The notes under the pieces: generated by a model | What the model was told of the DNA's origin: nothing | What the model saw: the letters and a program-made list of their open reading frames with translations, nothing else | Databases searched by the model: none | Part shown: positions 9,258-53,452 of the stretch, piece by piece | Position numbering within the stretch: the first letter of the stretch is position 1 | Layout of the letters: each line of letters begins with the position of its first letter | Translations under genes and position numbers: made by a program | Assembly (NCBI GenBank): GCA_031262365.1 | Contig: JAISHW010000062.1 | Span: 1 to 58,899 of the forward strand | DNA from: Lentimicrobiaceae bacterium | GTDB lineage: Bacteria; Bacteroidota; Bacteroidia; Bacteroidales; F082 | Length of the DNA: 58,899 nucleotides | Direction: 5' to 3'

Positions 9258-10439
9258 TTATGTGAAACTGTAGGTGAGACCGATTCCGAGTGATTCTTTA
9301 AATTGGAGTCGCGGACTTTCTCCTACTTTTACATCAACACCGTCAACAGTTTCGTATATGGGTATTTTGGTGTCGTGATCGTATTTGAAATGAAAAAACA
9401 GAATGGTCGAAACACGTTTGTTAATCGTGAAATTAATCGTTGTTTCCCAGTCGACATCGATGTTCCATCTGTTTTTGTTATTTTCGTCTAAGTAGTTGTT
9501 ATACAAGTTTAAAGTAGATAAAAGTTCGATGTTTTTTCCTAAAGGCTGTCTAAAATTCGCTAAAACATTAATACCAAATTCGACAAGATGATTTTTTCCT
9601 TTCATAATTTTATTTCCTGCCGTATCGTAAACAGCCGGTTCGACACCAAAAGCACCCTTATCAGCCAATTCTTGAATGCCGACAAAAGTAAATTTGCCAG
9701 ATGATGGACTTAAAAATAACGTGAAACGATCATCTTTTTTGTAACGATAACCTAATGAGAGGTTTAAATATGCCGGAGCACAAAATCCGGATATAATCGT
9801 AGAATCGTTAGGATATTTGTAACCATTGGCAAATTGCGTTTTAAATGTAACGACACCGGCAAATGTCCAATGTTTTATCGTTCTGCGTGTTACGGTTGCC
9901 GAAATGTCGATACGGTCGTCTATTTTTTCAATGCGATTGTTTTTGTAGTTAGCCATTCCGTAGGCAAACTTTCCGGTAATGTCGTATTCAACGAATTTAG
10001 AACAAGCTATAATTCGGATGTCGGAAAATACTTTTCCGGAAGCCGAACTTTCGCCTCCAGCTGCCCAATTCGATAATTGCAATTGGTTCAGCGAGATTCC
10101 TGATGATCCGCTAAATTTGTAATTCAATCTCCTATCTACTTTGCTCGCTGATTTAATACTGACGGTGGTATCGGTCGAAATCATGCTTAACTTAGGCACA
10201 ATAGTATCTTTCGAAATTAAAATTAATTGAGGAGGTAAAATTGTGTCGAGTAAGATAATCGACTGGTTAATAATTGGTTTAAGCAAAATAGTATCTTGTA
10301 AAAGATGCTGTTGATTTTTTGTCAAACTATCTGGATTGGGATCGGATAAAATTGACGAAAAAACCTTTAAATAGCTGCTTGTCAATATCAAAAAAAGAAA
10401 CAAAAATCGAAAAAAGTTTAAATACAAAAAACGCGACAT
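9258..10439 (-). CDS. DUF3078 outer membrane beta-barrel protein
   Basis: 393 residues with a hydrophobic signal segment (about 8-28). It then has a low-complexity linker rich in DTI/ILL (about 45-95), and a DUF3078-like core beginning at SLNQLQLSNWAAGGESS (about 116-132). Alternating aromatic strands (for example KWTF- and FHFKYDH-type) run to a C-terminal GLTYSFT ending in F-T, typical of barrels. Predicted outer membrane location; function unknown. It lies 81 bases upstream of ugd on the same strand, without clear evidence for cotranscription. Confidence 0.8.
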   Translation of the reverse strand: MSRFLYLNFFRFLFLFLILTSSYLKVFSSILSDPNPDSLTKNQQHLLQDTILLKPIINQSIILLDTILPPQLILISKDTIVPKLSMISTDTTVSIKSASKVDRRLNYKFSGSSGISLNQLQLSNWAAGGESSASGKVFSDIRIIACSKFVEYDITGKFAYGMANYKNNRIEKIDDRIDISATVTRRTIKHWTFAGVVTFKTQFANGYKYPNDSTIISGFCAPAYLNLSLGYRYKKDDRFTLFLSPSSGKFTFVGIQELADKGAFGVEPAVYDTAGNKIMKGKNHLVEFGINVLANFRQPLGKNIELLSTLNLYNNYLDENNKNRWNIDVDWETTINFTINKRVSTILFFHFKYDHDTKIPIYETVDGVDVKVGESPRLQFKESLGIGLTYSFT

Positions 10440-10530
10440 TTATGAGCCAAAATTATTATGTAGTGTTGAAATTAACGAAATATTGTAGTTCATAGTATAA
10501 GCTAAGTAGCAAGCTGCAACATTTTTTAAC

Positions 10531-10660
10531 AAGTGGGAACTTTTAAAAATCCCAATCTCTGCGTTACGCTTCTTCAACAAAATGCTCATTTACGCCAAGT
10601 AAACTCCGCTTTTGTTTCAGTCGCAAGCCTTGATATTGAAATTTTTAGAAGTCCCCAAGT
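10531..10660. mobile_element. 122-bp MITE-like element, copy 1 (with 4-bp target duplication)
   Basis: The element proper is 10535-10656. It begins GGGAACTTTTAAAAATCCCA and its far end, read on the other strand, begins GGGGACTTCTAAAAATTTCA; 18 of the outer 22 positions agree. It is flanked by AAGT at 10531-10534 and 10657-10660, read as a target-site duplication. The second copy at 51585-51706 has the same length and differs at only 3 positions. The whole element is an imperfect palindrome and encodes no transposase. It ends 12 bases after the duplication from the stop codon of the S9 peptidase gene, so it is in that gene's 3' region. Confidence 0.8.
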
Positions 10661-10672
10661 AATTTTTAGATT

Positions 10673-12775
10673 TTATTTAAGCCATTTATCGAGCCAATTA
10701 AAGAACCTGCGTTGCCATAAGATGCCATTCTGAGGTTTTAAAACCCAGTGATTTTCATCTGGAAAGAAAAGCAATTCGGCAGGAATACCTTGTAAAAGAG
10801 CGGCGTTATATGCTTGAAATCCTTGTGAAGATAAGATTCTGTAATCTTTGTCGCCATGAATAACCAAAATTGGTGTGTTCCAGTTTTGAACAAATTTGTG
10901 TGGCGAATTGGCATACGACCATTGTGCTCTTTTGTTGTTTTTGTCCCAAAATGGTCCGCCTAAATCCCATTCAACAAAAAACAGTTCTTCAGTCTCTAAG
11001 TATTGTGCTTCGAGATTAAACATGCCATCGTGTGCAATGAAGGCTTTGAAACGATTTTCGTGATTTCCGGCTAGCCAATATACCGAAAAACCGCCATAAC
11101 TCGCTCCAACAGCACCTAAACGGTTTTCGTCGACAAAGTCTTCTTTTGCAATCGCATCGATAGCTGCTAAATAATCGCGCATATTTTGTCCACCGTAATC
11201 GCCACTGATTTGTTCTTTCCATTCCTGACCAAATCCCGGTACGCCACGTCGATTCGGTGCTACGATAATGTAATCATTTGCTGCCATTATTTGAAAATTC
11301 CAACGATACGACCAAAACTGACTCACGCCACTTTGAGGACCGCCTTGACAGTAGAGCAAGGCAGGGTATTTTTTTGTAGGATCGAAATTTGGCGGATAAA
11401 TGACCCATGTCAGCATTTCTTTTCCATCGCTAGTCGGAATCCAACGTTTTTCCACTTTCCCTAATTGAAGATTTTTTATGACATAGGTGTTGATATGTGT
11501 CAGTTGTACAATTTCTGAATAATCATATAATGTAATTTTAAACATTTCAGATGGGTTACTCATCGATTGACGTACGCCAATCAAAAAATTACCGGCATAA
11601 TGTACCGAAGTGTAATCAAATGTGCCGTCGGTAATTTTTTCGATTTTGCGTGAAGTTATATTTAAGCGATAAATGTGTTCTTCGGCATGGTGGTTGCTTA
11701 TGAAAAAAAGTTTTTTACTGTCGGTCGACCAGCTTAAACCATGTACATCTTGATCGAAATTAAGCGTATAATCTTCTTTTACACCTGTTTTGAGGTTCAG
11801 AATAAAAAGTCTGTTTTTGTCGGCTTCGTAACCATCGCGTTCCATGCTTTCCCAAGCTAATAATGTTCCATCGGGCGAAAACGCAGCATTTAAGTCATAA
11901 CCCATCATACCTTCGGTTAGATTAACCGTCTTTTTTGTTTCGATTGTATATTGATACAAATCGGTGTTTGTCGATTCGGCGTATGCTTTTCCAATTAATT
12001 TTCGCGATGAATACACGATCGATTTGCTGTCGGGACTCCAGCAGATTTGCTCCATACCACCAAACGGGCGCACGGGGGCTTCCCATTTTTCACCTTCCAT
12101 AATATCGACCGAATTGCTGATGGATTTTCCGTCGTAATCGGCAATAAAAATATGGCTGTAAGTATCAACCCAATGGTCCCAGTGGCGGTACATCAAGTCG
12201 TTAATGATTCGTCCGCTGCTCAATGGCAAATCAGGATAAATATCTTTTACCGTTTCAGTAAGCTTTAAATCGGTGCTATAAAGAATCTTTGTTTGGTCGG
12301 GTGCATATTCGAATCCCGAAATACCGCCATCGATGTTCGATATTTGTTTACGTCCAGTGCCATCAGGATTGATTTCCCAAAGTTGCATGCTGCCGCTTTC
12401 GGCAGTTAAAAATCCGATTTTTTTGCTATCGGGGCTCCATCTGATGTTGTATTCGCTAAAGTCTGTGTTTGTAAGTTTTTTGTTGTTGCTTCCATCGGAG
12501 TTCATGATATACATTGCCGTGTTTCCTTTATTTTGTTTCACGCTGTAATAAGAAACACTATAAGCAATTTGCTTGTTGTCGGGCGAAACGCTGACTTCTC
12601 CCAAACGTCCCATCGACCATAATATCTCAGGAGTAAGCACATCAGATTCCCAATTGATTTCTTGAGGTCCGATTGCGGTAGATAAAGAAACGTTTTCTTT
12701 ATCCATATTTAATTTACACGAATTGAATATCAGACAGATAAACAAAACGCTACAAATAAAAGTGTATTTTTTCAT
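10673..12775 (-). CDS. S9 family peptidase (prolyl oligopeptidase / dipeptidyl peptidase type), exported
   Basis: 700 residues. N-terminal signal ends in FNSC at about 20, a weak lipobox, so a lipoprotein is possible. A beta-propeller made of TolB/WD40-like repeats (repeated WSPDSK and SPD motifs, roughly 60-420) gates a C-terminal alpha/beta hydrolase. Catalytic triad by motif: Ser559 in GASYGGF, Asp644 in HGDKDYRI, His676 in ENHWV. Such enzymes release dipeptides or acylated amino acids from peptides and usually act in the periplasm. The gene stands alone and a MITE-like element lies directly downstream. The exact specificity (DPP4, DPP5 or acylaminoacyl) is not readable. Confidence 0.9.
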   Translation of the reverse strand: MKKYTFICSVLFICLIFNSCKLNMDKENVSLSTAIGPQEINWESDVLTPEILWSMGRLGEVSVSPDNKQIAYSVSYYSVKQNKGNTAMYIMNSDGSNNKKLTNTDFSEYNIRWSPDSKKIGFLTAESGSMQLWEINPDGTGRKQISNIDGGISGFEYAPDQTKILYSTDLKLTETVKDIYPDLPLSSGRIINDLMYRHWDHWVDTYSHIFIADYDGKSISNSVDIMEGEKWEAPVRPFGGMEQICWSPDSKSIVYSSRKLIGKAYAESTNTDLYQYTIETKKTVNLTEGMMGYDLNAAFSPDGTLLAWESMERDGYEADKNRLFILNLKTGVKEDYTLNFDQDVHGLSWSTDSKKLFFISNHHAEEHIYRLNITSRKIEKITDGTFDYTSVHYAGNFLIGVRQSMSNPSEMFKITLYDYSEIVQLTHINTYVIKNLQLGKVEKRWIPTSDGKEMLTWVIYPPNFDPTKKYPALLYCQGGPQSGVSQFWSYRWNFQIMAANDYIIVAPNRRGVPGFGQEWKEQISGDYGGQNMRDYLAAIDAIAKEDFVDENRLGAVGASYGGFSVYWLAGNHENRFKAFIAHDGMFNLEAQYLETEELFFVEWDLGGPFWDKNNKRAQWSYANSPHKFVQNWNTPILVIHGDKDYRILSSQGFQAYNAALLQGIPAELLFFPDENHWVLKPQNGILWQRRFFNWLDKWLK

Positions 12776-51025: not shown

Positions 51026-51550
51026 ATGCTCGAAATTTTCTTATTTGTCATAGCCTATATTTTAGCACTTGTTGGAATAGCAGGCGCCATTATTCCGGGA
51101 ATTCCGGGTCCGCCGATTAGTTTTGCGGCTATTTTAGTGTTTCATTTTACCAAAAGCATCGAATTGTCGGAGCAATTTATTGGAATAATGGCATTACTTG
51201 CTTTCGGAATCACGCTTTTAGATTATTACATTCCCATTTACGGAACGAAAAAATTCGGAGGAACGAAGTATGGTATTTGTGGAAGTATAATTGGTCTGAT
51301 TATCAGCTTATTTATACTACCTATTTTAAGTATTACAATAGGACCATTCGGTCTTTTTGGAATCATTTTAGGTCCTTTTATTGGTGCTTTCGTTGGCGAA
51401 CTTATCGGCAATCAAAGCAGCGACAAAGCGTTTCGATCGGCAATCGGTTCGTTTTTGGGTTTTTTAGCCGGAACGCTGGCAAAGATTGTGTATAGTCTTG
51501 TCGTACTTGGATTTATGATTTGGGATAGCGTTATGATTTTATTGAATTAA
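51026..51550 (+). CDS. DUF456 family membrane protein
   Basis: 174 residues with about five hydrophobic segments (2-22, 28-40, 52-68, 82-125, 138-170). DUF456 signature GIAGAIIPGIPGPPISF (about 17-33) and the glycine-rich GPFIGAFVGELIG (about 116-128). Inner membrane protein; function unknown. Divergent from patB. A terminator hairpin begins inside its stop codon, and the second MITE-like copy lies directly after that. Confidence 0.88.
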   Translation: MLEIFLFVIAYILALVGIAGAIIPGIPGPPISFAAILVFHFTKSIELSEQFIGIMALLAFGITLLDYYIPIYGTKKFGGTKYGICGSIIGLIISLFILPILSITIGPFGLFGIILGPFIGAFVGELIGNQSSDKAFRSAIGSFLGFLAGTLAKIVYSLVVLGFMIWDSVMILLN

Positions 51551-51583
51551 ACTATTTTCGGCTTTTAGCCGAAAGTAGTTTAA
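51547..51583 (+). terminator. Hairpin after DUF456 gene, at the MITE insertion point
   Basis: TTAAACTA (51547-51554) pairs with TAGTTTAA (51576-51583), with an inner TTTTCGGCT/AGCCGAAAG arm. It ends at the target duplication (51581-51584) of the MITE-like element. Confidence 0.6.
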
Positions 51584-51710
51584 TGGTAACTTCTAAAAAT
51601 CCCAATCTTTGCGTTACGCTTCTTCAACAAAATGCTCATTTACGCCAAGTAAACTCCGCTTTTGTTTCAGTCGCAAGCCTTGATATTGAAATTTTTAGAA
51701 GTCCCCTAAT
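51581..51710. mobile_element. 122-bp MITE-like element, copy 2 (with 4-bp target duplication)
   Basis: The element is 51585-51706 and differs from copy 1 (10535-10656) at three positions, all within the first 26 bases. It is flanked by TAAT (51581-51584 and 51707-51710), read as a target duplication. The ends are imperfect inverted repeats and the whole element can fold on itself. It lies 2 bases after the duplication from the stop of the C69 dipeptidase gene. Confidence 0.8.
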
Positions 51711-51712
51711 TT

Positions 51713-53452
51713 CTATTCCGGTAGTTTAAATTTTGTTCCGGTTTCATTTATCAATGCTTTTTTATACGAGTCGGGATAACCCGGAAAAGAAGGCGATTGC
51801 GGATAGCCATACGGATTGCGTAAAAATTGTCCGTTTTCCTCTTTCTTTACATTCCCGTCTAAGTATTTTACTAACAGATAATCAGACAATTCTTTCCAAC
51901 GATTGATGGTCATATTTGCCATGTTGCACGAATAATCAGTCAGAAATGTTACAGCCAATTCGGGATCTTGCTTATACAATTCTAAAGCTCCTTTATCAAC
52001 TGCTGTTGTGTAGTTTACAAACTTTGATTCAAGTTCTTGTTGCACACTTTTTATATCCGGCATTACACGGTTGTAAAACAAATAAGCGAAATGTGCTACA
52101 CGGTTAAAAACCCAAAAAGCTGCATTGTCGGAATATGTCAACATATCGCCGTTTCCTTCTGCATAAGTTTCCGGGATTTTTGTTATCGAACAATAAAAAG
52201 GCACATAAACAGCTGTTCCGGCATCGTCGACACTAAACCAAAAAATGCCACCTATCGGATTGGGAAGCCAGTTGCGCATTTGTGCCACAAACGAAAATCC
52301 GGTTTGTTGCGTAACAGTTACTCTTTCGTGAAAATACATTTCGTCTTCATATTTCCAAGTCAACGGTCGCCAACGATAGGGTAATCCGAATGGTCCTGCT
52401 CCAACATCTTGACTCATATCAAGTTCTGTTCCTTGCATGTAATTTCGTTTGAAATGCATTAAATCGGTCGCACTAATTTTACGATTTGGACGGATATAAA
52501 GAGGCATGCGCGGTTTCGAAATATCGATTCCTGTTGCATAATCCCAATATTGCGACATCTCATCGCTCACTTCGTTAAACATTGCCCAAACACGTAAATC
52601 GCAGAAACGTGCGCCTTGAAAATTGATCGGATTGTAAGCATCGCAAAAACTAAATTGAGAATCTTCGCCATCGAAATAACCTTTTGCACGTGCAAAATCG
52701 ATGATATCAGCGGCATAAATGACTTCTACCGCGTCATCATTTAGTTTGTCCCATTGCTTATTGGTAATCGATTTTACACCATCGGCAAGTTTAAACTGCG
52801 CAATACGCGCCTGATTGGCGTGAGCCGATATGTAACCATCGGGAATACGGATAGCAATCCAAACAGCACCTTTGTTTGCATTGACAAGTTTTTTTGTTTT
52901 ACGATCTTTTTTCAAATCAACTCCTTTTCCAATCAGTTCCATGTACCACACTTCGTTCGGATCGCCAATCGAAAACGATTCGCCGGTGCTCGCATAGCCA
53001 TATTCTTCGACCAAATCAGCAATCACTTTGATAGCTTCACGTGCTGTTTTGGCGCGTTGCAAAGCCAAAGACATCAAACTACCGTAATCAACAATTCCAG
53101 TTGAATCGAAAAGTTCCGAACGACCGTCGAATGTACTTTCACCAATAGCAAGTTGGTGTTCGTTCATGAAACCAATTGTTTGGTACGTGTGTGCTATTTG
53201 CGGAATTTCGCCCAAAGGTTTTGCCGATCCACGATCATAAAGCGTTATCATCGTTCCTTCGGACCAATCAGCAGCGGGACGAAAATACAACTCACCATAA
53301 CGAATATGTGAATCAGCAGCGTATGTTACCATTGTTGAACCGTCGACAGAAGCACCTTTTGTTACCATAAAATTGGTACACGCATGCGTTTCGATATTAG
53401 CAAAAGAAAAGAATAAAAAAGCGAAAGTTAAAAGTCGAAATTGATACATCAT
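51713..53452 (-). CDS. C69 family dipeptidase, exported
   Basis: 579 residues from ATG 53452 (ATG 53449 is equally possible). Signal peptide ends ETHA before Cys25-Thr-Asn-Phe, the N-terminal nucleophile of C69/U34 peptidases of the Ntn fold, exposed by cleavage. GYASTGESFSIGDPNEVWYMELIGKG (about 150-175) and VDYGSLMSLALQRAKTAREA are family features. It would cut dipeptides in the periplasm. A longer frame to 53503 starts upstream of the -7 element (53476-53483) and is rejected. A MITE-like element follows its stop. Confidence 0.9.
   Translation of the reverse strand: MMYQFRLLTFAFLFFSFANIETHACTNFMVTKGASVDGSTMVTYAADSHIRYGELYFRPAADWSEGTMITLYDRGSAKPLGEIPQIAHTYQTIGFMNEHQLAIGESTFDGRSELFDSTGIVDYGSLMSLALQRAKTAREAIKVIADLVEEYGYASTGESFSIGDPNEVWYMELIGKGVDLKKDRKTKKLVNANKGAVWIAIRIPDGYISAHANQARIAQFKLADGVKSITNKQWDKLNDDAVEVIYAADIIDFARAKGYFDGEDSQFSFCDAYNPINFQGARFCDLRVWAMFNEVSDEMSQYWDYATGIDISKPRMPLYIRPNRKISATDLMHFKRNYMQGTELDMSQDVGAGPFGLPYRWRPLTWKYEDEMYFHERVTVTQQTGFSFVAQMRNWLPNPIGGIFWFSVDDAGTAVYVPFYCSITKIPETYAEGNGDMLTYSDNAAFWVFNRVAHFAYLFYNRVMPDIKSVQQELESKFVNYTTAVDKGALELYKQDPELAVTFLTDYSCNMANMTINRWKELSDYLLVKYLDGNVKKEENGQFLRNPYGYPQSPSFPGYPDSYKKALINETGTKFKLPE

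What the first reader, a model, noticed from the sequence alone, without database searches (positions are those of the whole stretch)
10531..10660. A hairpin-forming 122-bp MITE family, copy 1
The element has terminal inverted repeats (18 of 22 outer positions), a 4-bp AAGT duplication, no coding capacity, and a nearly full-length imperfect palindrome. The same element occurs at 51585-51706 with 3 differences and a different 4-bp duplication, which shows transposition. I cannot assign it to an insertion sequence family.
Basis: seen in the sequence. Interest (0 to 1): 0.65.

Follow-up and report, generated by a model that had tools for sequence, protein, structure and literature searches.

The report
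Hairpin MITE with a cross-phylum core
A short jumping DNA element without genes sits in at least 65 places in this Bacteroidales genome, and its central hairpin also occurs in green sulfur bacteria and Proteobacteria, which suggests that the folded shape itself matters.

Summary
A 122-bp non-coding element lies at 10535-10656 (AAGT duplication) and 51585-51706 (TAAT), with 3 differences, TIRs matching at 18 of 22 positions and unrelated flanks. The genome has at least 65 complete copies with readable flanks. A flush 4-bp duplication flanks 39 of 65 (3.5 expected, maximum 11 in 5,000 shuffles), with 18 or more different target words. It is a MITE. The transposase is not in the assembly, whose contigs stop about 117 bp inside a candidate IS. 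Candidate IS ends (GGGCACYTCTAAWAAT) match 14 of 16 TIR bases, and one MITE copy carries such an end.

Unexpected: the central hairpin (AAAATGCTCATTTACnnnAAGTAAACTCCGCTTTT) is conserved far beyond this family: Chlorobiaceae-like genomes (inferred), Rikenellaceae, gamma- and alphaproteobacteria, Mariprofundales, with different TIRs. Its pairs covary (7 of 13), and one strand folds better in 66 of 68 distinct elements. Copies prefer stop codons (22 of 47 against 11.1). Chlorobiaceae-type copies also show 4-bp duplications; Rikenellaceae copies do not, but sit just after stop codons in one orientation. No description was found in Rfam or the papers searched. The element is ordinary; the cross-phylum hairpin module is what is new.

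The parts
10531..10534 (.). left copy of the 4-bp target duplication AAGT
10535..10656 (+). MITE copy 1, 122 bp; + orientation = strand reading AAAATGCTCATTTAC in the core
10535..10556 (+). left terminal inverted repeat (GGGAACTTTTAAAAATCCCAAT), 18 of 22 matching the right one
10579..10613 (+). conserved central hairpin core AAAATGCTCATTTAC-GCC-AAGTAAACTCCGCTTTT
10552..10640 (-). match to covariance model R1 of the shared hairpin, 85.5 bits, on the strand that folds better (the window sequence is one of the 62 the model was built from)
10635..10656 (-). right terminal inverted repeat (GGGGACTTCTAAAAATTTCAAT read on -)
10657..10660 (.). right copy of AAGT; the stop codon of the minus-strand S9 peptidase gene (10673-12775) lies 12 bp further on
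51581..51584 (.). left copy of the 4-bp target duplication TAAT
51585..51706 (+). MITE copy 2, 3 differences from copy 1, between converging DUF456 (51026-51550 +) and peptidase C69 (51713-53503 -) genes
51629..51663 (+). central hairpin core of copy 2, identical to copy 1
51602..51690 (-). match to covariance model R1, 84.4 bits
51707..51710 (.). right copy of TAAT, 2 bp from the stop codon of the peptidase C69 gene

Best explanation
[quoted passage not shown] The likely helper is an IS with GGGCACYTCTAAWAAT ends living in the same genome. Multiple insertions, TIRs and 4-bp target duplications are shown; the helper IS is inferred and its transposase was not seen. Insertions accumulate at stop codons, where they leave the gene intact; that bias is shown, its cause is inferred. 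The centre is an older module: an imperfect hairpin whose base pairs covary and which recurs in Bacteroidia, Chlorobiaceae-type genomes and Proteobacteria with other terminal repeats. It is most likely kept because one strand (minus) must fold as single-stranded RNA or DNA, for example as a binding or processing hairpin; this last step is inferred.
For: At least 65 complete copies with flanks, mostly 121-122 bp with a minority of 164-203 bp; flush 4-bp duplications at 39 of 65 against 3.5 expected (maximum 11 in 5,000 shuffles); no comparable excess at other lengths. Candidate IS ends share 14 of 16 TIR bases, and copy C79:576-697 (L025) carries GGGCACCTCTAAAAAT at one end with its 4-bp duplication intact. 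In a Chlorobiaceae-type genome the homologous element has GGGCACCTCTATTTATTTG ends and flush 4-bp duplications TCAA, TCTG, ATAA, TTTA, TGTA. Stop-codon preference: 22 of 47 against 11.1 expected within the same intergenic gaps, 0 of 5,000 simulations as high. Hairpin: 7 of 13 pairs with changes on both sides, 97.4% of cells paired, 0 of 500 shuffles as high, slid controls far lower. Minus strand folds better in 66 of 68 distinct elements, also with the core replaced (62 against 2), and in 19 of 25 decided TIR clusters.
Against: No transposase with matching ends was found: IS1595-family DDE gives no hit in the own genome, the only DDE_Tnp_1 gene has unrelated ends, and the IS bodies behind the matching ends are absent from the assembly. 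26 of 65 copies lack a flush duplication (decay or recombination is assumed). No empty site in a close relative could be shown. In Rikenellaceae the homologous hairpins show no excess of duplications, so the shared module is not always a mobile element. The core matches from genome contigs were selected with an exact core pattern, so core conservation in those rows is partly by construction.
Confidence: 0.85

Rival explanations
1. It is a REP/BIME-type palindrome spread by a RAYT (Y1, HUH) transposase through single-stranded DNA, without target duplication.
For: Imperfect hairpin with a strand preference and extragenic position near gene ends, as REPs have (PMC3733652, PMC2817692).
Against: Clear 4-bp target duplications, 122-bp size with TIRs, and GGGAAC/GGGGAC rather than GTAG, GGAG or CGTC at the hairpin foot.
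Confidence: 0.04
2. It is a 3' untranslated-region RNA element (terminator, RNase III site or mRNA stabiliser) kept for its function; apparent mobility is secondary.
For: Insertion at stop codons; Rikenellaceae copies sit just after the upstream stop codon in one orientation (25 against 5, p = 3e-4; 22 of 61 within 12 nt against 9.2 expected; 0 of 41 on the other side) without duplications; covarying hairpin.
Against: In this genome orientation is not biased (+E+ 11, -E- 15), copies are 94-99% alike at unrelated genes, duplications are still intact at most copies, no terminator-like site was found in or beside the two window copies, and 4 copies lie inside ORFs.
Confidence: 0.1
3. It is a by-product of the IS1595-type element found inside one copy, which would be the autonomous parent.
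For: At C4:20099-20269 the MITE left end runs straight into an IS1595-like ORF start; I first took it for the parent.
Against: The same IS start occurs at other sites without any MITE sequence (C90, C8, C101), so the IS simply inserted into a MITE copy.
Confidence: 0.01

Closest known systems
Bacterial MITEs in general, e.g. MITEAba12 (113 bp, mobilised by ISAba12; PMC6382973)
   Same: Size, no coding capacity, TIRs, AT-rich target duplications seen at part of the copies (40% there, 60% here), multiple copies.
   Different: MITEAba12 makes 9-bp duplications, shares its TIRs with resident ISAba12 copies and was reported within Moraxellaceae; here 4 bp, helper unseen, and the core recurs across phyla.
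BrickBuilt of Porphyromonas gingivalis (IS5-like TIR GAGACCTTTGCAAAA; PMC4596501)
   Same: Bacteroidales MITE; TIR resembles ours at about 10 of 15 positions (compared by eye); 4-bp duplications (GAAA, AAAA) reported at two sites.
   Different: Contains a 23-bp minisatellite; the hairpin core studied here is not mentioned in the passages read; IS5 origin was inferred there from the ends, and is not tested for our element.
REP/BIME palindromes with RAYTs (PMC3733652, PMC2817692)
   Same: Imperfect hairpins outside genes, high copy number.
   Different: 20-40 bp with a tag tetranucleotide, spread by Y1 transposases; ours has TIRs and 4-bp duplications.
hupL MITE of Ca. Thiomargarita nelsonii (PMC4853749)
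   Same: Widespread MITE whose parent IS could not be found.
   Different: 10-bp direct repeats and 19-bp inverted repeats; its sequence was not compared here.
NEMIS of Neisseria (transcripts are RNase III substrates; cited in PMC10969869)
   Same: MITE that can fold in transcripts next to genes; a model for the RNA rival.
   Different: Different genus and different sequence as far as known; RNase III cleavage is not tested here.

Membership tests
MITE | short (under about 500 bp), no transposase coding | tested here: met
   122 bp, only chance ORFs of 20-66 aa crossing it
MITE | terminal inverted repeats | tested here: met
   18 of 22 outer positions; 26-nt arms 81% complementary
MITE | target-site duplication of fixed length at different targets | tested here: met
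   39 of 65 flush 4-bp repeats against 3.5 expected, 21 different words
MITE | multiple copies at unrelated sites | tested here: met
   at least 65 complete copies, at least 40 at 94% identity or more
MITE | autonomous parent with the same ends | tested here: inconclusive
   IS-like ends GGGCACYTCTAAWAAT found at contig edges, transposase not assembled
IS5-derived MITE | parent transposase of the IS5 family | not testable with these tools
   helper IS body missing from the assembly; TIR and 4-bp duplication are only suggestive
IS1595-derived MITE | parent is the IS1595-type element joined to one copy | tested here: not met
   the IS start occurs without MITE sequence elsewhere
REP/RAYT element | GTAG/GGAG/CGTC tag at the hairpin foot and no target duplication | tested here: not met
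   feet are GGGAAC and GGGGAC; 4-bp duplications
integron attC site | RYYYAAC and GTTRRRY boxes | tested here: not met
   neither box on either strand
Rfam RNA family | match at or above a gathering score | tested here: not met
   no element match in the window, in six other core loci or in nine CM-hit loci
intrinsic terminator | G+C-rich stem followed by a T run | tested here: not met
   none in 10400-10800 or 51450-51850

The most novel reading that the evidence does not exclude
The central hairpin is an ancient, structure-selected single-strand module (RNA or ssDNA of one strand) that different mobile elements across phyla have carried with unrelated terminal repeats, and that in Rikenellaceae became a fixed 3' element placed just after stop codons. 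It would be an undescribed structured nucleic-acid family with a host or transposition partner still to be found.
Probability: 0.3. Interest if true: 0.75.

Novelty: new variant of a known kind. Interest (0 to 1): 0.5.

Why it matters
MITEs are usually species- or genus-bound leftovers of a local IS. A hairpin core that keeps its base pairs, its internal loop and its strand preference between Bacteroidia, Chlorobiaceae-type genomes and Proteobacteria, while the ends change, implies that something recognises the fold. That makes a concrete question testable: what binds or cuts this hairpin, and does it help the element spread or serve the host gene whose stop codon it follows. The strong stop-codon siting also offers a case of insertions that do not damage genes.

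Tried and rejected
IS1595-type parent: rejected, it is nested inside a MITE copy. PF12762 in the own genome: no hit. PF01609: one IS4-like element with unrelated ends. Candidate helper IS (L062 type) in 295 genomes of the order and in plasmids: no full element. Chlorobiaceae-type single ends fetched to find an IS: no transposase between ends, only ordinary genes and solo ends. MITE in plasmids and phages by blastn: no match with the window copy, although relatives of the core hit Pseudomonas, Halomonas and Fukatsuia plasmids. A relaxed core pattern in viral contigs gave 19 hits, about what chance gives, so it was not used. Literature searches for the core letters, for stop-codon MITEs and for structured MITEs found no description.

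Full report
Observation. Both copies are exactly as described: 122 bp at 10535-10656 and 51585-51706, 3 differences, TIRs matching at 18 of 22, AAGT and TAAT duplications, no flank homology. No ORF belongs to the element. The minus strand folds as RNA with z -5.9, the plus strand with z -4.8; as DNA the minus strand z is -2.5.

Genome-wide copies. The window is contig C87 of a 2.23-Mb, 119-contig genome. The search returned 40 matches at 94% identity or more, its scoring cap, out of 135 candidates, and 175 end-like 16-mers against 0 in the control. From searches and fetched stretches I assembled 65 non-redundant copies with both ends and 60 bp of flank: mostly 121-122 bp, six of 164-203 bp. 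The longer form has an extra internal palindrome at the hairpin tip. Many contigs end inside an element, so the repeat breaks the assembly and the count is a lower bound.

Target duplications. A flush 4-bp repeat flanks 39 of 65 copies; shuffling right flanks among copies gives 3.5 on average and never more than 11 in 5,000. Other lengths show no comparable excess (on a slightly redundant set of 77). There are 21 different words, mostly T/A-rich (TTTA, TAAA, TTTT, TTAT).

Helper. Two IS-like ends in the genome, GGGCACTTCTAATAAT and GGGCACCTCTAAAAAT, resemble the MITE ends, and one MITE copy (C79:576-697) has the second as one of its own ends. They run off contig ends after about 117-312 bp or belong to short degenerate repeats, so no transposase could be read. 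An IS1595-type element first looked like the parent but is only inserted in one copy. The sole DDE_Tnp_1 gene of the assembly has other ends. The IS family therefore stays open. The TIR resembles the IS5-type TIR reported for BrickBuilt (PMC4596501), which is a lead only.

The core reaches other phyla. blastn against 60 relatives found weaker matches covering the centre but not the ends. Chance expectation for that pattern in 257 Gb is far below one. A covariance model from 62 distinct sequences hit 43 of 396 Bacteroidota-phylum genomes, 39 of them in one family (f136) outside the class of the window. There the element is about 142 bp with GGGCACCTCTATTTATTTG ends, and flush 4-bp duplications flank several copies (TCAA, TCTG, ATAA, TTTA, TGTA). 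Relatives with the core occur on Pseudomonas, Halomonas and Ca. Fukatsuia plasmids; one Halomonas copy has GGAGCCTC ends and a TTAA duplication, read by eye. Rfam has no such family.

Structure. In the alignment 97.4% of cells pair; 7 of 13 pairs have double changes, 43 such cells, against 1.9 pairs and 13.6 cells in shuffles, 0 of 500 as high; sliding the partners by one to three columns drops pairing to 28-48%. The rows picked by the exact pattern cannot vary in the inner core, so changes there come from the unbiased rows. In some Chlorobiaceae-type copies the tip stem is replaced while the flanking CTCA/ACTCC loop stays. The minus strand folds better in 66 of 68 distinct elements. With the core replaced by a fixed hairpin the outer arms alone still favour the minus strand, 62 against 2. 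For the outermost 24 nt, grouped into 26 TIR clusters, it is 19 against 6, p = 0.015. Shared ancestry inflates the first two counts; the last is the fairest test and is modest.

Position. In this genome 22 of 47 usable copies lie within about 6 nt of a stop codon, against 11.1 for random placement in the same gaps (0 of 5,000 simulations as high), and orientation is unbiased. Copy 2 lies 2 bp past its duplication from the stop codon of a C69 peptidase gene, copy 1 lies 12 bp from that of an S9 peptidase gene. In the mostly Rikenellaceae set, 22 of 61 lie within 12 nt of the upstream stop codon (9.2 expected) and 0 of 41 near the downstream convergent one (6.2 expected), with a 25 to 5 orientation bias among co-directional genes. 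Those copies show no excess of target duplications and are often followed by a terminator-like hairpin. Gene calls are simple ORFs of at least 100 aa, so some neighbours may be wrong.

Verdict. The window element is an ordinary MITE in its mechanism, with an unassigned 4-bp-duplicating helper. What is not ordinary is the shared, covarying, strand-biased hairpin core. I rate the finding a new variant of a known kind, with moderate interest.

Noticed in passing
L299 (Staphylococcus aureus plasmid record NZ_CP077935.1, 237975-241007), 1501-1533: The same hairpin core (94% over 33 bp, CM 50.6 bits) lies in what looks like a 16S-23S spacer just before a 23S start, without the MITE arms. It could be chance, an old insertion or an independent use of the fold.
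   Followed up: partly
G000 C22, C2, C41, C65, C107 and others (L061, L206-L217): A second repeat family with GGGCACCTCTAAAAATTGATTTTT ends and a TATC microsatellite, about 31 matches in the genome.
   Followed up: partly
G000 C3, C14, C71, C78, C85, C91 (L062, L200-L205): An IS with GGGCACTTCTAATAAT end and an ORF starting MSRTTNYKPSGRI, identical at six contig edges, body missing from the assembly.
   Followed up: partly
L068/L080 (C4:20119-20269): An IS1595-like element inserted inside a MITE copy; the same IS start occurs at three other sites.
   Followed up: yes
L101, L112, L118, L122, L136, L145, L177 and similar Alistipes loci: The hairpin is followed about 10 nt later by a strong terminator-like hairpin whose sequence recurs between loci (GGGGATGACAAATTTACTTTTTAGTCATCCCC), as if hairpin and terminator were copied as one 3' cassette.
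   Followed up: no
L265 236-400 and L077 about 1700-2000: Repeats of the type GGATTCCGGCCTTCGCCGGAATGAC next to TTGACAAAGTCAG, resembling dRS3-like short palindromes known from Neisseria (from memory).
   Followed up: no
window 51550-51580: A 14-nt inverted repeat (AACTATTTTCGGCT/AGCCGAAAGTAGTT) right at the 3' end of the DUF456 gene, ahead of MITE copy 2; probably that gene's own terminator or 3' hairpin.
   Followed up: no
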